This document shows, one piece after another, positions 19,140 through 30,346 of a DNA stretch of 62,271 bases. The position numbers and the translations under genes were made by a program. The notes beneath the pieces were generated by a model, which worked only from the letters and a program-made list of their open reading frames with translations, was not told the origin of the DNA and did no database searches. Each line of letters opens with the position of its first letter. Positions within the stretch are counted from its first letter, which is position 1. Source of the DNA: Conexibacter sp. (lineage in GTDB: Bacteria; Actinomycetota; Thermoleophilia; Solirubrobacterales; Solirubrobacteraceae); assembly GCA_025964325.1 (NCBI GenBank), contig JAOPZA010000092.1, positions 1 to 62,271 on the forward strand, in the 5' to 3' direction.

Positions 19140-20002
19140 CGGGACCCGACGACATCGCGGTCGAGGAGGGCGCCGAGGCACGCGGCGCCGCAGCGCAGGG
19201 CGCCGAGGCACGCGGCGCCGCGTTCTTCGATCTCGATCGCACGCTGATGGCGGGGTCGAGCGCGTACGAGTTCGCGCGCGCCTCCTACCGCCAGGGCCTG
19301 CTGACCCGCCGCCAGCTCGTCGCCGGCGCGTGGGCGAACGTGCGCTTCCGCCTGCTCGGCTCGACCGACGCCGGCACCGACGCGCTCCGCGCCGGCGTCG
19401 CCGAGATGATCCGCGACGTGCGCGTCCGCGACCTCCAGCGGCTCGGCCCCGACGTGCTCGCCGGGATCTTGCCGCGCATCTACCCGCAGATGCTGCGCGT
19501 CGCCTACGAGCACCAGGACGCGGGCCGGCCCGTCTACATCGTCACCGCGGCCGCGCACGAGGTCGCCGAACTGCTCGCCCACGTCCTGACGTTCGACGGC
19601 GGCGTCGGCGCGCGCTCGGAGATCCACGACGGCATCTACACGGGGCGCCCGGAGGGACCGTTCACCTACCGGGAGGGCAAGGCGGAGGCGATCCGCGAGC
19701 TGGCGGCAGCCGAGGGCTTCGACCTCGCGGCCTCCTACGCGTACTCCGACTCGGAGTCGGACCTGCCGATGCTGCGCGCGGTCGGGAACCCCGTCGCCGT
19801 CAACCCGGACGCCGAGCTGGCGCGCGTCGCGCGCGAGGAGGGCTGGGACGTGCTGCGCTTCGAGCGCCTCGGCCGCCGGCTCAAGGTCGCGGCCACGGCT
19901 CTCGCCGGCGCGGCGATCGGCGGAGCCGGCAGCTTCGCCGTGCGCCGTGCCCGCGCGGCGAGCGAGCCGAAGCCGCCCGCGCGCACGCGCTGGCTGCGAT
20001 GA
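19136..20002 (+). CDS. HAD-IB family hydrolase
   Basis: Phosphatase-like HAD protein with motif I FFDLDRTLM, motif II YIVTAAAH, a Lys in REGKAEAI and motif III YSDSESDLPML, as in SerB-like HAD-IB enzymes of actinobacteria; a hydrophobic segment near the C-terminus (ALAGAAIGGAGSF) suggests membrane association. The start is a puzzle: no ATG, GTG or TTG lies between the thiolase stop and motif I. CTG 19136, overlapping the thiolase TGA, or ATC 19154 are the only plausible candidates. The N-terminus encodes two copies of GAEARGAAAQ from a palindromic 30-bp repeat. Substrate unknown. Confidence 0.8.
19169..19219 (+). repeat. In-frame palindromic repeat, two copies
   Basis: A 21-bp palindrome with arms GGCGCCG and CGGCGCC around AGGCACG occurs at 19169-19189 and 19199-19219, period 30 bp. 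It is in frame and adds about ten residues per copy in front of HAD motif I. It may have displaced the original start codon of that gene. Confidence 0.75.
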
Positions 20003-21186
20003 GCCTGCACGAGCTGACCGACGAGCAGCGCGAGATCCGCGCGCTCGCCCGCCGCTTCGGCGAGGAGGCGATCGCTCCCCACGCCGCCGGGTGGGACCGC
20101 GAGCACCGCTTCCCGAAGGAGGTCTTCGTCGCGCTCGGCGAGCTCGGCCTGATGGGTGCGTGCATCCCCGAGGAGCACGGCGGGGCCGGCACCGACTTCC
20201 TCTCGTACGTGCTGGCGATCGAGGAGCTCTCGCGCGCCGACGGCGGCGTCGGCGTGACGGTCGCCGTCCATACCTCGGCGGTCGAGCTGCCATTGCTCGC
20301 GCACGGCGATCCCGACCAGCTCGCGCGCCTGCTGCCACCGCTGGCCCAGGGCCACGAGCTGGGCGCCTTCGCGCTGACCGAGCCGGAGGCGGGGTCCGAC
20401 GCCGCCGCGCTGCGGACGCGCGCCGTGCCCGACGGCGCGGGCGTGCGAATCACCGGCACGAAGCAGTTCGTCACGACCGGCTCCCACGCCCACACGCTGA
20501 TCGTCTTCGCCCGCGACGAGGACGGCGGCGCGGCCGTCGAGCCGGCCGGCGCGGACGGCGCCCGCCGCGCCCCGATCTCCGCGTACTTGGTGCGGCGTCC
20601 GTCGCACGGCCTGAGGGTCGCGCGCGAGGAGGAGAAGCTCGGCCTCAACTCCTCCTCGACCGCCGAGCTGACGTTCGAGGACACGCCCGGCGAGCGGCTC
20701 GGCGCGCCCGGGGCCGGGATGCGGATCGCACTCGGCACGCTCGACGGCGGCCGCATCGGGATCGCCGCCCAAGCGGTCGGCATCGCGCAGGCCGCGCTCG
20801 ACGTCGCGACCGCCTACGCGCGCGAGCGCAACGCCTTCGGCGGGCCGATCGGCCGCCTCGGCCAGGTCCAGCACAAGCTGGCGGAGATGCAGACCGAGAT
20901 CGAGGCCGCCCGTGCGCTGACGTGGCGGGCGGCGCGGCTGAAGCAGGCCGGCCGGCCGCACACGGTCGAAGGCGCGCAGGCGAAGCTGTTCGCCTCGCGC
21001 GTCGCGCGCCACTGGACCGGCGAGGCGATCCAGATCCTCGGCGGCTACGGCTACACGCGCGAGTTCCCGGCCGAGCGCTACTACCGCGACGCGAAGGTGA
21101 CGGAGATCTACGAGGGCACGAGCGAGATCCAGCGGCTCGTGATCGCCCGCGCGCTGCTGGGCGAGGCGGCGCGGTCGGTCTCCTGA
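19999..21186 (+). CDS. Acyl-CoA dehydrogenase
   Basis: 395-residue FAD flavoprotein that makes the alpha,beta double bond in acyl-CoA and passes electrons to ETF, encoded just downstream. Family features: [26 protein letters not shown], the FAD-binding [21 protein letters not shown] and the catalytic Glu within [16 protein letters not shown]. Short/branched-chain specificity is suggested by the Glu position in the last motif but is not certain. ATGA overlap with the HAD gene. A 30-residue Gly/Ala-rich loop near residues 172-192 ([18 protein letters not shown]) is longer than usual. Confidence 0.93.
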
Positions 21187-21813: not shown

Positions 21814-22605
21814 TTGAAGATTTGCGTCCTGGTCAAAGAGGTGCCGGACGCCGCCGTCGAGAAGCGCATCGACGCCTCGACGGGGCGGATGGACCGCAAC
21901 GGGGAGAAGAACCTCAACCCGTATGACACGCACGCCATCGAAGCGGCGATGCAGATCAAGGAGGGCGGGGTCATCCCGGTCGAGGAGATCGTCGCCGTGA
22001 CGATGGGCCCGGAGTCGGCCGTCCGCGCGCTCCACAAGGCCGTCTCGCTGGGCGCCGACCGCTCGCTCCACCTGACCGACGCCGCGCTCGCCGGCTCCGA
22101 CGTCGCCGCGACCGGCTACGCCCTCGCGAAGGCGCTCGAGAGAGAGGCGCCCGACCTCGTGCTCCTCGGACAGCAGTCCGACGACGGCGAGTGCTACACG
22201 ATCGGCGCGGTGGTCGCCGACCACCTCCGGATGCCGTCGCTCACCCAGGTGATCCAGATGGACGTCGCCGACGGCGGCCTGCGCTGCGAGCGTCAGGCCG
22301 AGTACGGCTACGACACCGTTCAGGTCGAGCTGCCCGCCGTGATCTCGGTCGGCGACGCGATCAACGAGCCTCGCTACCCGTCGCTCAAGGCGATCATGGG
22401 CGCGAAGAGAAGACCGCTCGAGACGCTCGCCTCCGGCGACGTCGGGATCGACGTCGCGCTCGTCGGCGTCGACGGCTCGCGCGTCTCCTGCGGGGAGTTC
22501 CACGCGCCGCCGGCGAAGGCGGCCGGGCAGATCATCGAGGACGAGGACACGAACGAGACGGTCGAGCAGATCGTCGCGTGGCTGGACGAAAGGAAGCTGA
22601 TCTAG
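21814..22605 (+). CDS. etfB: Electron transfer flavoprotein subunit beta
   Basis: 263-residue ETF beta (FixA-type), which with ETF alpha carries one FAD and shuttles electrons from acyl-CoA dehydrogenases to ETF-quinone oxidoreductase. It opens KICVLVKEVPD and has NPYDTHAIEAA, AVTMGP and VGDAINEPRYPSLKAIMGAK, all family signatures. The TTG start is decided by a strong GAGGAGG seven bases upstream (21800-21806) and by homology beginning there; a leadered mRNA of about 35 nt is expected from the promoter at 21745. ETF alpha follows without a gap. Confidence 0.94.
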   Translation: MKICVLVKEVPDAAVEKRIDASTGRMDRNGEKNLNPYDTHAIEAAMQIKEGGVIPVEEIVAVTMGPESAVRALHKAVSLGADRSLHLTDAALAGSDVAATGYALAKALEREAPDLVLLGQQSDDGECYTIGAVVADHLRMPSLTQVIQMDVADGGLRCERQAEYGYDTVQVELPAVISVGDAINEPRYPSLKAIMGAKRRPLETLASGDVGIDVALVGVDGSRVSCGEFHAPPAKAAGQIIEDEDTNETVEQIVAWLDERKLI

Positions 22606-23583
22606 ATGGCGGAAATTCTCGTCTACGTCCTCCACAACGAGGGCACGCTCAACAGAAACTCGCTCGGCGCCGTCTCGGAGGCGGCGAAGCTCGCGTCCGA
22701 GCTCGGCACGACGGCCGACGCCGTCGTCGTCGGCGGCAGCGACCTCACGGACGACCTGCTCGGGACGCTCGGCAGCTACGGCGCCGGCCGCGTCTTCCGC
22801 GCCGCGGGCCCGGAGGGGCTCGCGCAGCCGGTCGTCGACGTGATGGCGAAGGTGATCGACGAGCACGGCCACGGCTACGCGATCTTCGGTGGCGGCCTGC
22901 TCGGCTTCGAGATCGGCGCCGGCCTCGCCGCGCGCAAGCAGGCGGGCGTGACGATGGAGGTCACGGGCGTGTCGGTCGAGGACGGCAAGCTCGTCGCGGA
23001 GCGCCCGATCCTCGGCGACTCGCAGATCTCGCGCTCGAAGTACCGCGGCGACCTCGGCATCATCATCGGCCGCATCAACGCCTTCGAGGTCAGAGAGAGC
23101 GGCAGCGGGCCGGCGGAGGTCGTCGACGTCGAGATCGAGTACTCGCCGTGGTCGACGAAGGCGACGATGGTCCAGCGCGGCGAGCAGCGCGGCGCCGACG
23201 TCAACATCGAGGACGCGAAGATCCTCGTCGCGGGCGGTCGCGGCCTCGGCAAGGCCGAGGGCTTCGAGCTGGCCGAGGCGCTCGCCAACGCGCTCGGCGG
23301 GGCGGTCGCCGCGACCCGCGCCGTGGTCGACGCCGGCTGGTATCCCTACGCCGCTCAGATCGGGCAGACGGGCAAGACGGTCTCGCCGAAGCTGTACCTC
23401 GCGGCCGGCATCTCCGGCGCGATCCAGCACAAGGTCGGGATGCAGTCCTCGGAGAACATCGTGGCGATCAACAAGGATGCGAACGCTCCGATCTTCGAGT
23501 TCTCCGACCTCGGGATCGTCGGCGATCTGAACAAGATCCTGCCGAGACTCACCGAGGCCGTGAAGGCCAAGAAGGGGAGCTGA
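22606..23583 (+). CDS. etfA: Electron transfer flavoprotein subunit alpha
   Basis: 325-residue ETF alpha (FixB-type). The N-terminal half is the AMP/ETF-like fold; the C-terminal half carries the FAD-binding module with [36 protein letters not shown] (the diagnostic GISGAIQH) and [11 protein letters not shown]. Its ATG follows the etfB stop directly, so the two subunits are produced together. Third in line is ETF-QO, completing the path from acyl-CoA to the quinone pool. Confidence 0.95.
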
Positions 23584-23588
23584 TCGCG

Positions 23589-25331
23589 ATGGCGTCCGGC
23601 AGCAGGAACGGGAGCACGGTCCCGGCGGACTACCCGCCGCCGGTCGACTCGCCGACGGAGTTCGTCAAGCGCGGGCTCGACGGCGAGGACGAGCGGATCG
23701 ACGTCGGCGTCGCGATCGTCGGCGGCGGCACCGCCGGGTTGGCGGCCGCCAATCGCCTGCTGCAGCTGCTGGCGGACGACCCGGCGCTGATGGAGCGCCT
23801 CGGCGAGGTGCCGGTCGCCGTGCTCGAGAAGGCGAAGACGTGCGGCGGGCACAACCTGTCCGGGGCCGTCATGCGCCCGGGGCCGCTGCAGGAGCTGTTC
23901 CCACGCATCGACCGCGAGCAGTGGCGCAAGGAGGGCTTCGCCTACGGCGAGGTCACGAAGGAAGCCGTCTACCTGCTTCCGAGCCGCAAGACGAAGCTGC
24001 GGATCCCGCCGCCGCCGCCGTTCAGAAACCACGGCAACGAGGTCGTCTCGGTCGCGGCGATGGCGCGCTTCCAGCAGCGTCAGGCGGAGGAGGGCGGCGC
24101 CTACGTGCTGACCGAGACGTCCGCGACGCAGCTGATCGTCGAGGACGGCAGGGTGGTGGGCGTGCGCTCGGGCGACAAGGGTCGCGGCAGAGACGGAGAG
24201 CCGCTCGGCAACTTCGAGCCGGGCACCGACATCAGAGCCCACGCGACGGTGCTCGCGGACGGCTGCTGGGGCTCGCTGACGGGCGCCGCGATCCGCGAGT
24301 TCGACCTCTCGAAGGGCCGCGAGCCGCAGGTCTGGGAGCTCGGCGTCAAGGAGGTCTGGAAGGTCCCGAAGGCGCTCGATCGCGTGATCCACACGATCGG
24401 CCCCTGGCCGCTCAAGCTGTCCGCCAGATACGGGCAGATCGGCGGCACCTGGATCTACCCGATGAAGGACGAGAAGACGGGCGAGGACCTCGTCTCGATC
24501 GGCTTCGTCATCGACCTCGAGTACGCCGACGCGACGACCTCGGCGCACGACCTGCTGCAGCTGTTCAAGCTGCACCCGCTCGTGAGAGGGATCCTCGAGG
24601 GCGGCGAGCGCGTCGGCTGGGGCGCGAAGGCCCTCCCCGGCGGCGGGTACTGGTCGATGCCGAAGCTGACGATGCCGGGCGCGCTGCTCGTCGGCGACGC
24701 CGGCGGCCTCGTCGACACCGTCTCGCTCAAGGGCATCCACCATGCGATCCGCTCCGGCAGACTCGCCGGCGAGGCGATCTACCAGGGCCTCAAGAACGGC
24801 GACTCGTCGTTCGACTCCTACGAGGACGAGCTGCTCGCGTCGGCGACGGGCAAGGAGCTCTACGCCGTCCGCAACGGGCGCCAGCCGTTCCAGAAGGGCT
24901 TCATCAGAGGCGCGCCGATCGTCAACCTCGCGATCGCCACGAGAGGCAGACTGCCGGGCGGGCGGCTCGGCTGGCACAAGAACGACGAGCGCGCGATGTT
25001 CGTCGGCGACACCGTCAAGAGCTATCCGAAGCCGGACGGCAAGTACACGTTCGACAAGCTCTCGAGCGTCTTCATCACCGGCAACGCGACGCGCGACGAC
25101 GCGCCGAACCACATCCGCGTGCAGAAGCAGGTCCCGCGCGAGATCGCCGAGACGTGGAGATGGATGTGCCCTGCGGGTGTCTACGAGATCCCCGACGACG
25201 CCCCGGAGACGGGCGACGTCGACGTGATCGTGAACTACACGAACTGCGTGCAGTGCGGCGCGATCACGGCGAAGGGCGGGCGCCTCACGCCGCCCGAGGG
25301 CGGCGACGGGCCGCTCTACCAGCTGACCTGA
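23589..25331 (+). CDS. ETF-quinone oxidoreductase with altered Fe-S motif
   Basis: 580-residue membrane-associated flavoprotein that oxidises ETF and reduces quinone. FAD site [15 protein letters not shown] near residue 37, [12 protein letters not shown], and [22 protein letters not shown] are family hallmarks. The C-terminal ferredoxin-like region has [10 protein letters not shown] and [13 protein letters not shown] before [10 protein letters not shown]. Human-type ETF-QO has CPAGVYE plus NCVxCKTC: four cysteines. Here the last Cys is replaced by Ile (C-G-A-I), leaving three. The cluster may be changed, use another ligand, or be a clade variant. Starts 6 bp after etfA. Confidence 0.92.
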
Positions 25332-25409: not shown

Positions 25410-26273
25410 ATGACGCGCCTCCGGTTCACCCGGGGCGCCTTCCTCGTCACTGCGATCGCTCTCCTCGTGTCCGCCGCCGCGGCCGGGGCGGCCGTCCCGA
25501 CCGGGCAGGCGACCCCCTACGCCGCGCAGCTGCTGAGCTGTCACAGCTCGCCGCGGGTCGCCGCGCGCTCGGTCGCGGTCGCGACCACGATGCGGCCGCT
25601 CGGCAGCGGTCGCCGGCTGCTGGTGCGGATCGACCTCCAACAGCGCTCGATCGACGGCGGTCGCTGGACGGCGCGCGGCGACGTGCCCGGGCTCGGCGTC
25701 TGGATGTCGCCGAGCGATCCCGCGATCGGCAGCCGGCCGAACGACGTCTTCAAGTACCGCCAGGCGGTCGGGCGGCTCGTCGCACCGTTCCAGTTCCGCT
25801 TCCGCGTCGGCTTCCGCTGGCTCGACGCCGACGGCGACGTGGTGCGCTCGTCGGCGACGTGGACGGCCGCCTGCAAGCAGCCCGAGCTGCGTCCGGACCT
25901 GACGATCGTCCGCACCCGACAGATGCCGGATCCGCTCGAGCCCTCCGCGATCCGCTATTCGGTCCTGGTGAGGAACCAGGGCGTCGCCTCCGCCTGGAAC
26001 TTCGACGTCGCCGCGCAGTTCCCGAGCGCCGACCGGAGCCGGACGGCGGCGCCCGCCCAGCTCCGCACGGTCACCCGGCTCGCTCCGCAACAGACCGTCT
26101 GGCTGGCGTTCACGGGCCCCCCGTGTGCGGCCGCGGCAGCCGGACCCGTCGCGCCGGCGTTCACCGCCGACCCCGCGAACGAGATCGAGGAGAGCAGCGA
26201 GACGAACAACGCCCTGACCGCGACGTGCCCGCCCACCGCACCCCCGCCCGTCGCTACACTGGGCAGACCATGA
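25410..26273 (+). CDS. Secreted protein with CARDB-like domain
   Basis: 287-residue exported protein. A signal peptide is clear: basic MTRLRFTRG, hydrophobic [18 protein letters not shown] and an AxA-type cleavage region. The middle contains CHSSP and WTAACKQ cysteines. The C-terminal third begins LRPDLTIV and runs through [14 protein letters not shown] and [14 protein letters not shown], the pattern of CARDB (cell-adhesion-related) immunoglobulin-like domains. Likely extracellular, function unknown. ATG 25410 follows AAGG; GTG 25404 is an alternative. Its stop overlaps rpmE. Confidence 0.75.
26255..26260 (+). promoter_or_regulatory. -10 box of rpmE
   Basis: TACACT lies 9 nt upstream of the rpmE ATG, inside the end of the preceding gene. 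The spacing predicts transcription starting at or next to the start codon (leaderless). No good -35 box is seen. Confidence 0.45.
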
Positions 26274-26500
26274 AGACAGCAATCCATCCCGAGTACGCCG
26301 ACACTCAAGTTCGCTGCACGTGCGGCAACGAGTTCGTGACACGCTCCACCAACGGCAGAGAGATCCGCGTCGAGATCTGCTCGAACTGCCACCCGTTCTA
26401 CACGGGCAAGCAGAAGCTCGTCGACACCGGCGGTCGCGTCGAGCGGTTCCAGCGTCGTGCCGCGAAGCGCGCACGCGACGAAGCCGCCGCGAAGGCGTAA
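26270..26500 (+). CDS. rpmE: 50S ribosomal protein L31
   Basis: 76-residue ribosomal protein bL31. [22 protein letters not shown] and [20 protein letters not shown] are highly conserved. Cysteines 16, 18, 37 and 40 form the zinc site of the C+ (zinc-containing) type, as opposed to the zinc-free paralogue used in zinc starvation. The start overlaps the previous stop (ATGA) but a -10 box 9 nt upstream suggests its own transcript. It opens the conserved rpmE-prfA block. Confidence 0.96.
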
Positions 26501-26534
26501 CCGGCCGCATGCGCCACCTCGACGGGGACGTTTC

Positions 26535-27680
26535 ATGAGCTCATCTGAGACGAACCCGCCGGGGGCGGCCCATACCTCGCTGCTAACCGCGTCCTCCCCG
26601 GCCGCGCCCGGCGGCACGGCTCCGACGCCGTCGCCGAACGCCCCGGGCGTCGCCACGCCGCCGCCGCCGGCGGCCACCGCCTCCGACCGTCCCGACGGTC
26701 AGCTGACCGCTTCGCGCGATGCGCCGGTCGGCGGTCAGGCCGTGCTCGAGGGCGTGATGATGCGCGGGATCTCGACATGGGCGGTCGCGGTCCGCAAGCC
26801 GCTGCCCGAGCAGATCGCCGACGGCCATCACCTCGCCGCCGACGAGGCCGCCGAGGGCGAGATCGAGGTCCAGAGCGGCCCGCTCGACTCGTGGCTGAGA
26901 CGCCACCGGCTGCTGCGCCTGCCGATCATCCGCGGCGTCGTCGCCCTCGTCGAGTCGATGCGGCTCGGCTTCAGAGCGCTCGGCATCTCCGCCAACGCGC
27001 AGCTGCCCGAGGACGAGCAGGAGATCTCCAACGGCGCCTGGATCGGGACGATCGTCCTCTCGGTCGTCCTCGCGATCGGCCTCTTCTTCCTCGTCCCGGT
27101 CGGGATCACCTCGCTGATCAAGGACCAGCTCGGCTCGTCGTTCCTCTTCTGGCTGATCGAGGGCCTGATCCGGACCGCGATCTTCCTCGGCTACCTGATC
27201 GCGCTGTCGAGACTGCGCGACCTGCGGCGCGTGTTCGAGTACCACGGCGCCGAGCACAAGACGATCTCGTGCTTCGAGGCCGGGATGCCGCTGACGCCGC
27301 AGAACGCGCAGCGCTTCTCCCGTCTCCATCCCCGCTGCGGCACGACCTTCCTGCTGATCGTGATGATCGTGGCGATCTTCGTCTTCGCGCCGATCGGACT
27401 GCCCGCCTGGTACTGGCTCGTCTTGACGCGGATCGTCGGCGTGCCGCTGATCGCCGGGATCTCGTTCGAGCTGATCAAGTGGTCGGGCAAGCAGCGCCGC
27501 CGGCCGTGGGTGCGGGCCGTGATGTGGCCCGGCATCCAGCTCCAGTACCTGACGACCCGCGAGCCGGATCTGAGCCAGCTGGCCGTCGCGATCGCCTCGC
27601 TCGAGGCCGTGCTGGCCGTCGAGGGCGACCTCGGCACCACGAACGCCGACGACCTCATCGGCGTCGAAGTCGTCGCGTAG
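26535..27680 (+). CDS. DUF1385 (YqhQ-like) membrane protein
   Basis: 381-residue protein. A disordered Pro/Ala/Thr-rich N-terminus of about 65 residues leads to [23 protein letters not shown], the signature of DUF1385. Four or more membrane helices follow, with [17 protein letters not shown] and [12 protein letters not shown], conserved His/Glu/Cys motifs that look metal-binding. Family members sit between rpmE and prfA in many actinobacteria and Firmicutes. The biochemical role is not known to me. ATG 26535 follows GGGGACG 35 bp after rpmE, likely co-transcribed. Confidence 0.9.
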
Positions 27681-27774
27681 CCGGCGTCTCGACACGAACA
27701 GCGCGTCCGTCGCGCGCATTGCCCTGGCACGCCGTCGGACACAGACGCCTGCGGCAGGAGGGGTACTCGCGGCT

Positions 27775-28470
27775 GTGCTGGCGGTCGGGGACCGGGCGGT
27801 GCTGAGCCACCGCGATGCAACCGCACTGCACGGTCTGGGGCCCTCGAACGGCACCCGCGTCGACGTCAGCACCAGCGACCGCAACCGCTCGTCGCTGCCG
27901 GGCGTCACCGTGCACTCCTCGTTGCTCGTCGAGGCCGACGTCACGGTCGTGAACGCGATCCCGACGACGGCCGCGCGCACGCTCGTCGATCTCGCCGGCG
28001 TCGTGCCGAGGGACCAGCTCGCCAGGGCGCTGACGGAGGCCGAGCGGATGGGGGTGCTCGACGTCGAGGCGATCGAGGCCGCACGCTCGCGCGCGAGGGG
28101 TCGGCGCGGCCGCGGCGACGCAGCGCTCCAGGCCGCGATCGCGGAGCACCGCGCCCTCCGCGCGCAACTGACCCGCTCCAAGCTCGAAGCCCGTTTCCTC
28201 GAGCTGCTGCGAAGCGCGGGACTGCCGCGCCCGAGCATCAACGCCACCATCCACGGCCACGAGGTCGACGCGCTCTGGCCGGAGCGGCGCGTGATCGTCG
28301 AACTGGACGGCTGGGCCTTCCATCACACGCGCCGAGCCTTCCGACGCGACCGCAGCAAGGCGAACGCGCTGATGCTCCGCGGCTACGCCGTCCTGCGTTC
28401 CACCCACGACGATGTGACGCGCCGGCCGGAGCGGGTCGCGGCTGAGCTGCGAGGCCTGCTGACCACCTAG
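27775..28470 (+). CDS. DUF559 endonuclease-like protein, N-terminally shortened
   Basis: 231-residue protein. The C-terminus KLEARFLELLRSAGLP...NATIHGHEVDALWPERRVIVELDGWAFHHTRRAF is a DUF559/very-short-patch-repair-like nuclease fold with D/E-x-D-type acidic residues. The central AVLSHRDATALHGL matches the segment following the winged-helix (AbiEi-type) domain in longer relatives, but the first 50-60 residues including that helix domain are missing. GTG 27775 has AGGAGGGG 10 nt upstream. Related-looking codons (GGVLAA) extend upstream without a start, suggesting an eroded 5' end. May be functional or decaying. Confidence 0.72.
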   Translation: MLAVGDRAVLSHRDATALHGLGPSNGTRVDVSTSDRNRSSLPGVTVHSSLLVEADVTVVNAIPTTAARTLVDLAGVVPRDQLARALTEAERMGVLDVEAIEAARSRARGRRGRGDAALQAAIAEHRALRAQLTRSKLEARFLELLRSAGLPRPSINATIHGHEVDALWPERRVIVELDGWAFHHTRRAFRRDRSKANALMLRGYAVLRSTHDDVTRRPERVAAELRGLLTT

Positions 28471-28473
28471 ACT
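28468..28473 (+). promoter_or_regulatory. -10 box of prfA
   Basis: TAGACT, sharing its TAG with the stop codon of the upstream gene, ends 9 nt before the prfA ATG. There is no ribosome-binding site, so prfA is probably transcribed leaderless from here. A -35 box is not obvious. Confidence 0.5.
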
Positions 28474-28482
28474 CGACCCCAG

Positions 28483-29535
28483 ATGATCGAGCAGCTCGTC
28501 AACCAGATCGACGCCCGCTTCGCGGAGCTCGAGCGCCAGATGTCCGACCCCGAGGTGATCGGGGATCGGCAGCGCTACGCCGATGCCGGGCGCGCGTACT
28601 CGGAGCTCGAGCCGGCGGCGCGGCTCGCGGCCGAATGGCGCCGCGCCGTCGACGACGAGGCCGGCGCGCGCGAGCTGCTGGCCGAGGACGGCGACGATCC
28701 CGAGCTGCGGGAGCTGCAGGCGACCGCGAGAGCGCGGATCGACGCGCTCGACGAGGAGATCCGCCTCGCGATGGTCGAGCGCGACCCGAACGACGACAAG
28801 AACGTGATCGTCGAGATCCGCCCCGGCGCCGGCGGCGACGAGGCCGGCCTCTTCGCCGGCGACCTGTACCGGATGTTCACCAGATACGCGGAGCGGCGCG
28901 GCTTCCAGATCGAGCCGATGTCGGAGGGCAACGGGCAGTACACGCTCGCGGTCAAGGGCGACGGCGCCTACTCCGTCTTCAAGTTCGAGGGCGGCACGCA
29001 CCGCGTCCAGCGCGTCCCCGAGACCGAGTCCCAGGGCCGCACCCACACCTCGACGGCGACGGTCGCGGTGCTGCCGGAGGCGGAGGACGTCGACGTCGAC
29101 GTGAACGAGAACGACCTGCAGATCGACGTCTACCGCTCCTCCGGTCCCGGCGGGCAGTCGGTCAACACGACCGACTCGGCGGTCCGCATCACGCACAGAC
29201 CGAGCGGCGTCGTCGTCTCGATGCAGGACGAGAAGTCCCAGCTGCAGAACCGCGAGAAGGCGATGCGCGTGCTGCGCGCGCGGCTCTACGAGCGCGCGCT
29301 CGCCGAGCAGCAGGCGAGACTGGCCGCGAACCGCCTCGAGCAGGTCGGCAGCGGCGAGCGCGCGGAGAAGATCCGCACCTACAACTTCCCTCAGGGCCGC
29401 GTCAGCGACCACCGCATCAAGCTGACGGTCCACAACCTCGACGCGATCCTCGGTGGCGAGCTCGACGAGCTGACCGCCGCGCTGCAGGACGATGAGAAGC
29501 GGCGCCGCCTCGAAGGGCAGGCCGACGGCCGCTGA
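28483..29535 (+). CDS. prfA: Peptide chain release factor 1
   Basis: 350-residue class I release factor that ends translation at UAA and UAG. The GGQ motif is at residues 223-225 in [20 protein letters not shown]; upstream [27 protein letters not shown] is the RF1-type region containing the stop-codon-recognition context, and the N-terminal 100 residues are helical as expected. PrmC, the methyltransferase for the GGQ glutamine, is encoded next and overlaps by 44 bp. Full length for the family. Confidence 0.97.
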
Positions 29536-30346
29536 CGTCCGCGGCGCGCTCGCCGCGGCGACCGCGGCGCTGCGGGAAGCCGGCTGCGAGAGTCCGCGGC
29601 TCGACGCCGAACTGCTGCTCGCGGCAGCCCTCGGCGTCGCGCGGACGCGGCTCCACATCGAGCCGGAGCGGTCGCTGACGCGCGAGCAGGCGGCGCGCTT
29701 CGCCGGCCTGCTGGAGCGGCGGCGCGACCGCGAGCCGGTCGCCTACATCCTCGGCACGCGCGCGTTTCGCCACATCGAGCTCGCCGTCGACCCGCGCGTG
29801 CTCGTGCCGCGGCCGGAGACCGAGCTGCTGGTCGAGCTGGCGCTGACGCTGCCGCGCGGCGCGCGCGTCGCCGACGTCGGCACCGGCAGCGGCGCGATCG
29901 CGCTGGCGCTCAAGCAGGAGCGCGCCGACCTCGACGTGATCGCGACCGACGTCAGCGCGGACGCGCTCGCGCTCGCGCGCGCCAACGCGGCGCGGCTCGG
30001 GCTCGACGTGACGTTCGCCGAGGCCGACCTGCTCGCCGGCGTGAGCGGCGAGCTCGACGCGGTCGTGTCGAATCCGCCCTACATCCGCGACGCTGACCGC
30101 CCGTGGCTCGCGCCCGAGGTCGCGCGCCACGAGCCGGCCGGCGCGCTCTTCGCCGGGGAGGACGGCCTCGACGTGCTGCGGCGGCTCGCGGTCGAGGCCG
30201 CCGCGCGGGCGCGCTGGGTCGCCTTCGAGCTCGGCGCCGGCCAGGCGCCGGCCGTCGGCGAGCTGCTGCGCGCCGCGGGGATGGCGCGCACGACCGCGCA
30301 TCGCGACCTCGCCGGCATCGAACGCGTGGTGGTGGGGGAGCGGTGA
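29492..30346 (+). CDS. prmC: Peptide release factor glutamine methyltransferase
   Basis: 284-residue N5-glutamine methyltransferase that modifies the GGQ of release factors. It has an N-terminal helical domain, then PRPETELLVELAL, SAM motif VADVGTGSGAIALAL, and catalytic NPPY at residues 194-197 (VVSNPPYIRDAD). ATG 29492 overlaps the end of prfA by 44 bp; there is no later good start before the domain. Its stop overlaps the GTG of the next gene (GTGA). Confidence 0.95.
   Translation: MRSGAASKGRPTAADVRGALAAATAALREAGCESPRLDAELLLAAALGVARTRLHIEPERSLTREQAARFAGLLERRRDREPVAYILGTRAFRHIELAVDPRVLVPRPETELLVELALTLPRGARVADVGTGSGAIALALKQERADLDVIATDVSADALALARANAARLGLDVTFAEADLLAGVSGELDAVVSNPPYIRDADRPWLAPEVARHEPAGALFAGEDGLDVLRRLAVEAAARARWVAFELGAGQAPAVGELLRAAGMARTTAHRDLAGIERVVVGER

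What the first reader, a model, noticed from the sequence alone, without database searches (positions are those of the whole stretch)
25160..25331. ETF-quinone oxidoreductase with only three of four cluster cysteines
The conserved NCVxCxxC becomes NCVQC-G-A-I, so the last ligand of the [4Fe-4S] cluster is an isoleucine, while CPAGVYE and the C-terminal PEGG...PLY are kept. The flanking sequence is well conserved, so this is not decay. Electron transfer to quinone may use a different cluster or ligand.
Basis: partly seen in the sequence, partly recalled or inferred. Interest (0 to 1): 0.6.

Follow-up and report, generated by a model that had tools for sequence, protein, structure and literature searches.

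The report
Three-cysteine ETF-quinone oxidoreductase clade
This bacterium's enzyme for passing fat-oxidation electrons into the respiratory chain lacks one of the four cysteines that hold its iron-sulfur cluster, and a whole ancient branch of the enzyme family in several bacterial phyla has the same change, so it probably carries a three-iron cluster instead of a four-iron one.

Summary
The gene at 23589-25331 (+) encodes a 580-residue ETF-quinone oxidoreductase (ETF-QO) directly behind etfB-etfA. Three cluster cysteines are kept (C527, C553, C556). The fourth ligand position of the pig enzyme is Ile559.

It is not decay, error or a one-off. All 77 such proteins found by family search, with no selection for the motif, have the same three Cys and Ile. 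They come from most families of the window's bacterial class and from two further phyla. No other Cys is conserved. A tree built without the cluster domain puts them in one clade, apart from canonical four-Cys ETF-QO. The predicted fold matches pig ETF-QO over its whole length.

Best explanation: a working ETF-QO with a [3Fe-4S] cluster. The open corner is capped by Ile, as in the [3Fe-4S] site of succinate dehydrogenase. Cluster type is inferred; a four-iron cluster with a water or non-cysteine ligand is the main rival.

Side result: in the window's class, SdhB of the three-Cys lineages carries Cys at its own [3Fe-4S] site. A Dadabacteria genome does not, so it is not a rule.

I found no description of this subfamily in the open papers searched. 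Verdict: new variant of a known kind.

The parts
23589..25331 (+). ETF-quinone oxidoreductase gene (580 aa), three-Cys variant
   Evidence: Pfam ETFQO_UQ-bd 1.1e-20 and Fer4_ETF_QO 2.1e-13, both over the curated cut-offs; pig ETF-QO 2gmh E 6.5e-83 over residues 37-578; model mean pLDDT 89.8, Z 43.2 to 2gmh
25167..25187 (+). CPAGVYE motif with cluster ligand 1 (C527)
   Evidence: aligned with CPAGVYE of pig ETF-QO; Cys in 141 of 141 three-Cys rows, which include overlapping copies
25242..25283 (+). [14 protein letters not shown]: ligands 2 and 3 (C553, C556) and Ile559 in place of ligand 4
   Evidence: Ile in all 77 family-found proteins
25263..25265 (+). ATC codon of Ile559 where canonical ETF-QO has the fourth Cys
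25293..25319 (+). [10 protein letters not shown]-terminal motif; loop from ligand-4 position to PEGG is four residues shorter than in pig
   Evidence: alignment; conserved
22606..23583 (+). etfA (ETF alpha subunit, FAD-binding), redox partner
   Evidence: Pfam ETF_alpha 8.2e-35; 5 bases before the ETF-QO start
21814..22605 (+). etfB (ETF beta subunit); exact start codon uncertain
   Evidence: Pfam ETF 2.6e-37; solved ETF beta subunits from 1.5e-42
20000..21186 (+). acyl-CoA dehydrogenase, a likely electron donor to ETF; start approximate
   Evidence: Pfam Acyl-CoA_dh_1 4.1e-50 and N domain 7e-37

Best explanation
This is a functional ETF-quinone oxidoreductase of a distinct three-cysteine subfamily. 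It takes electrons from ETF, which is made by the two genes just upstream and loaded by acyl-CoA dehydrogenases, and passes them through an iron-sulfur cluster and FAD to the membrane quinone. Its cluster is most likely a [3Fe-4S] cluster held by C527, C553 and C556. Ile559 sits where the fourth iron and its cysteine would be and closes off that corner, as Ile or Val does at the [3Fe-4S] site of succinate dehydrogenase and fumarate reductase. Shown: gene order, homology, fold prediction, the three Cys plus Ile, their conservation and the single clade. Inferred: that a cluster is bound, that it is [3Fe-4S], and the electron path.
For: The three Cys are kept in 77 of 77 family-found proteins, while the fourth position is always Ile. 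If the cluster had been lost, the other three Cys should drift. No new conserved Cys exists. No conserved side chain of the usual ligand kinds (His, Asp, Ser) replaces it locally: residues 560 and 561 vary (T/S/N/G and A/S/D/F), and K562 and an acid at 503 also occur in canonical enzymes. The clade is single, with SH-aLRT 100, in a tree built without the cluster domain. Precedent: E. coli SdhB (1nek_B) aligns as CHSIMNC with Ile at this relative site, E. coli FrdB binds [3Fe-4S] with C158, C204 and C210 (PMC1459171), and [3Fe-4S]-to-[4Fe-4S] conversion of fumarate reductase by mutagenesis is in the literature (Manodori 1992, cited in PMC10238741). Whole-length fold match to pig ETF-QO: Z 43.2, rmsd 2.2 over 526 residues. 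It is the only Fer4_ETF_QO gene in the genome.
Against: No spectroscopy is known to me for any member. Three-Cys sites can also hold [4Fe-4S] clusters with water, hydroxide or a distant ligand (aconitase, radical SAM enzymes; general knowledge). Coordinates of the model were not available, so a non-cysteine ligand brought in from elsewhere could not be measured; N499, W344 and R431 are subfamily-specific and their distance to the site is unknown.
Confidence: 0.62

Rival explanations
1. The enzyme binds a site-differentiated [4Fe-4S] cluster: three Cys ligands and water, hydroxide, a small molecule or a non-cysteine side chain on the fourth iron.
For: Three-Cys [4Fe-4S] clusters are well known in aconitase and radical SAM enzymes (general knowledge). 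Several residues are specific to the subfamily (N499, W344, R431, W523, M526) and could mark a rebuilt pocket.
Against: The lost position is always the bulky, apolar Ile rather than a small or polar residue, which fits a closed [3Fe-4S] corner better than an open iron site. No subfamily-specific conserved His, Asp or Ser was seen.
Confidence: 0.25
2. The cluster has been lost and the enzyme works with FAD alone (or a structural metal on the three Cys); electrons go from ETF straight to FAD.
For: FixC-type and geranylgeranyl-reductase-type relatives keep the flavin fold without this domain.
Against: Complete conservation of three Cys and of CPAxVYE, NC and EGG across three phyla; Fer4_ETF_QO domain over its Pfam cut-off.
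Confidence: 0.1
3. The missing Cys is a sequencing error, frameshift or decaying pseudogene of this one genome.
For: None found.
Against: The same residues occur in 77 genomes; the open frame is intact in an etfB-etfA-ETF-QO gene order, and no second ETF-QO exists in the genome.
Confidence: 0.01

Closest known systems
Mammalian/proteobacterial ETF-ubiquinone oxidoreductase (pig 2GMH, human ETFDH; four-Cys type)
   Same: Length, FAD, quinone-binding and Fe-S domains, CPAGVYE, NC..C and PEGG motifs, whole-length fold (Z 43.2), role next to ETF genes
   Different: Fourth cluster Cys is Ile; CKTCDIKDP becomes CGAITAKGG with a four-residue shorter loop; separate clade in the tree
FixC/FixX (EtfCX) of bifurcating ETF systems
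   Same: Related flavoprotein fold (7koe_C); FixX shares Pfam PF05187 and a G after the second motif Cys (CLECGTC)
   Different: FixX is a separate small ferredoxin that keeps all four Cys; here one fused protein with three
SdhB/FrdB [3Fe-4S] centre of complex II
   Same: Works like it if the best explanation holds: three Cys with Ile or Val at the fourth ligand site of a quinone-reducing enzyme
   Different: Unrelated fold and family; an analogy, not membership
EtfD (mycobacterial ETF:menaquinone oxidoreductase)
   Same: Same physiological job, and a three-iron cluster in place of the four-iron one of its Hdr relatives, a Cys of which is replaced (PMC13083937)
   Different: Not homologous to ETF-QO; HdrD-like membrane protein with a linear [3Fe-4S] cluster (PMC13083937)

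Membership tests
ETF-quinone oxidoreductase (canonical, four-Cys) | FAD-binding and quinone-binding domains | tested here: met
   Pfam ETFQO_UQ-bd 1.1e-20 over cut-off; alignment to pig 2gmh residues 33-581; whole-length fold match
ETF-quinone oxidoreductase (canonical, four-Cys) | C-terminal Fe-S domain (PF05187) | tested here: met
   50.7 bits against a cut-off of 24
ETF-quinone oxidoreductase (canonical, four-Cys) | Four Cys ligands of the [4Fe-4S] cluster | tested here: not met
   fourth ligand is Ile559 in this and all 77 family-found subfamily proteins
ETF-quinone oxidoreductase (canonical, four-Cys) | Falls inside the clade of canonical proteins | tested here: not met
   other side of a branch with SH-aLRT 100, cluster domain left out
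ETF-quinone oxidoreductase (canonical, four-Cys) | Oxidises ETF and reduces quinone | not testable with these tools
   only gene order with etfB-etfA supports it
[3Fe-4S] cluster proteins of the SdhB/FrdB ligand type | Three Cys with an aliphatic residue at the fourth ligand site | tested here: met
   I559; compare CHSIMNC of 1nek_B
[3Fe-4S] cluster proteins of the SdhB/FrdB ligand type | Three-iron cluster by EPR, Moessbauer or structure | not testable with these tools
   needs purified protein
FixX / EtfX ferredoxin | Separate small protein with four Cys (CLECGTC) | tested here: not met
   fused 580-aa protein with three Cys

The most novel reading that the evidence does not exclude
An ancient branch of ETF-QO replaced its four-iron cluster by a natural [3Fe-4S] cluster. 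In the window's class the same lineages did the reverse in complex II (SdhB gained a Cys at its [3Fe-4S] site), so the two main electron entries into the quinone pool exchanged cluster types, perhaps to retune potentials for the quinone used.
Probability: 0.15. Interest if true: 0.72.

Novelty: new variant of a known kind. Interest (0 to 1): 0.5.

Why it matters
ETF-QO is taught as a [4Fe-4S] flavoprotein. A clade found in several phyla that lacks one ligand by descent would show that this cluster can be exchanged for another type in a working respiratory enzyme. It offers a natural test of what the cluster does in electron transfer from ETF to quinone, which is hard to study in the human enzyme whose defects cause glutaric aciduria type II. 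It also means that annotation as '4Fe-4S ETF-QO' in these lineages is probably wrong in cofactor.

Tried and rejected
Substitute Cys elsewhere in the protein: rejected. C85 and C226 of the window are not conserved; only 527, 553 and 556 are. Local non-cysteine ligand: positions 560-561 vary, K562 is shared with canonical proteins. Plasmid-borne copies: the listed hits are proteobacterial, and the five fetched are canonical four-Cys types. Variant across Actinomycetota: the motif was found only in the window's class among 396 genomes. Chloroflexota: 1 of 301 genomes, possibly a misbinned contig. A rule linking three-Cys ETF-QO to Cys-type SdhB: refuted as general by a Dadabacteria genome whose SdhB-like protein reads CTFVGEC (about half of that genome had been fetched, so a second copy is not excluded). 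Quinone type as the cause was not tested. Paper searches gave no description of a three-Cys ETF-QO; subscription journals are mostly missing from the library. The PNAS 2006 pig structure paper is not held.

Full report
What is there. The reading frame at 23589-25331 on the + strand encodes a 580-residue protein that matches the ubiquinone-binding and Fe-S domains of ETF-quinone oxidoreductase (ETF-QO) over their Pfam cut-offs. It aligns with pig ETF-QO (2gmh) from end to end, E 6.5e-83. It follows etfB (about 21814-22605) and etfA (22606-23583) with a five-base gap. An acyl-CoA dehydrogenase and a B12-binding domain protein lie further upstream. It is the only gene in its genome with the Fer4_ETF_QO domain. 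It therefore looks like the normal route from ETF to quinone.

The missing ligand. Pig ETF-QO reads CPAGVYE...NCVHCKTC. The window reads CPAGVYE...NCVQCGAI. C527, C553 and C556 keep their places and the fourth ligand site is Ile559. The loop from that site to the PEGG motif is four residues shorter than in pig. No Cys follows, and no upstream Cys is conserved among relatives.

How widespread it is, inside the class. A family search in 149 genomes of the same class found Fer4_ETF_QO matches in 124. I read 53 of the ETF-QO proteins of the window's type from that search, in class families f1, f2, f3, f4, f5, f7 and f10. All 53 have the three Cys and Ile. Class family f8 has ordinary four-Cys ETF-QO in seven genomes. 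Families f6 and f9 have FixX-type ferredoxins with CLECGTC. Across 396 genomes of the phylum the exact motif was found only in the window's class.

How widespread it is, outside the class. A scan of 84,980 species genomes used a codon restriction to hold back the GC-rich class. It found the same motif in Dadabacteria, a 'Deltaproteobacteria' MAG, Wallbacteria, a Chloroflexi MAG and a Bacteroidota MAG. Unselected family searches then gave 11 of 11 three-Cys proteins in the phylum of the Dadabacteria genome and 13 of 14 in the phylum of the 'Deltaproteobacteria' genome; the fourteenth is canonical. In the phylum of the Wallbacteria genome 3 of 40 genomes carry the motif, in the Chloroflexi sample 1 of 301. 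In total 77 family-found proteins from 77 genomes, chosen without reference to the motif, all have Ile at the fourth site. No intermediate was seen; L167 (CIHCNAISFKGG) still has Ile.

One clade. I built a maximum-likelihood tree from everything upstream of CPA, so that the trait itself was left out. It puts 39 three-Cys proteins on one side of a branch (SH-aLRT 100) and 10 canonical ones on the other, with one change of state. Within the three-Cys side, the window's class and the other phyla form two groups. Because both canonical ETF-QO and FixX have four Cys, loss of the fourth in the ancestor of this clade is the simplest reading (inference).

Structure. AlphaFold2 with 53 class sequences gave mean pLDDT 89.8. 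The model matches pig ETF-QO over residues 19-580: Z 43.2, rmsd 2.2 over 526 residues (Foldseek rank 1). The fold is that of a complete ETF-QO. Coordinates could not be read, so distances around the cluster were not measured.

What it most likely does. Shown: homology, gene order, conservation, single clade, fold prediction. Inferred: three Cys that never vary mean that a cluster is still bound, and an apolar residue that never varies at the fourth site means that no iron ligand is needed there. This is the arrangement at the [3Fe-4S] site of complex II: E. coli SdhB aligns as CHSIMNC (1nek_B), and FrdB binds its three-iron cluster with C158, C204 and C210 (PMC1459171). A [3Fe-4S]-to-[4Fe-4S] conversion of fumarate reductase by mutagenesis is on record (Manodori 1992, cited in PMC10238741). 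I put [3Fe-4S] at about 0.62 and a three-Cys [4Fe-4S] with water or a distant ligand at 0.25. Subfamily-specific residues that might mark a rebuilt pocket are N499, W344, R431, W523 and M526; none is an obvious ligand.

A side observation on complex II. In this genome the main SdhB (G000:C38:6098-6778) reads CTHCFNCIEACP, with Cys where E. coli SdhB has Ile. Within the class, all 30 main SdhB proteins read from three-Cys ETF-QO families have Cys there. The 15 main SdhB proteins read from families f6 and f8, including four genomes with canonical ETF-QO, have Ile. So the two quinone-reducing enzymes show opposite changes at their cluster sites. This may be one evolutionary split rather than a functional link. 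A Dadabacteria genome with three-Cys ETF-QO has CTFVGEC in its SdhB-like protein, so the pairing is not a rule.

Relation to known systems. M. tuberculosis and M. smegmatis use the unrelated EtfD, which carries a linear [3Fe-4S] cluster where its Hdr relatives have a four-iron one, a Thr replacing a Cys (PMC13083937). That parallel makes a three-iron ETF-QO plausible but is no evidence for it. No description of a three-Cys ETF-QO turned up in the open papers searched; that library lacks most subscription journals.

Verdict. By the membership test it is not a canonical four-Cys ETF-QO. It is a separate subfamily that most likely works like one, with cluster type still to be measured.

Noticed in passing
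L189 (G000:C38:6098-6778 -); related genomes L203, L206-L209, L211-L234: SdhB of lineages with three-Cys ETF-QO has Cys at the residue that is Ile in the [3Fe-4S] site of E. coli SdhB (CTHCFNC or CTRCMFC), predicting a second [4Fe-4S]; class families f6 and f8 keep Ile (CHTIxNC). Reciprocal to the ETF-QO change, but not seen in a Dadabacteria genome (L259, CTFVGEC).
   Followed up: partly
L102, L105 (records titled Bifidobacterium breve), L115 (Burkholderiales), L123 (Eremiobacterota): MAG records whose three-Cys ETF-QO looks like that of the window's class, so the names or the binning are probably wrong. The genome of L123 also has a canonical four-Cys copy (L125).
   Followed up: no
L235 (G056:C48:56308-57236): A genome of class family f6 carries a second SdhB of the Cys type (CTHCYVC) beside its ordinary Ile type (L204).
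   Followed up: no
L190 (G000:C240:20350-20949 -): A second SdhB/FrdB-like protein in the window's genome has CTNHGEC, with His at the fourth-ligand position.
   Followed up: no
window 26270-30346 +: Downstream of the ETF-QO lie a ribosomal protein L31-like reading frame (by eye), a DUF1385 protein, and a release factor 1 gene followed by a prmC-like methyltransferase gene (the last three).
   Followed up: no
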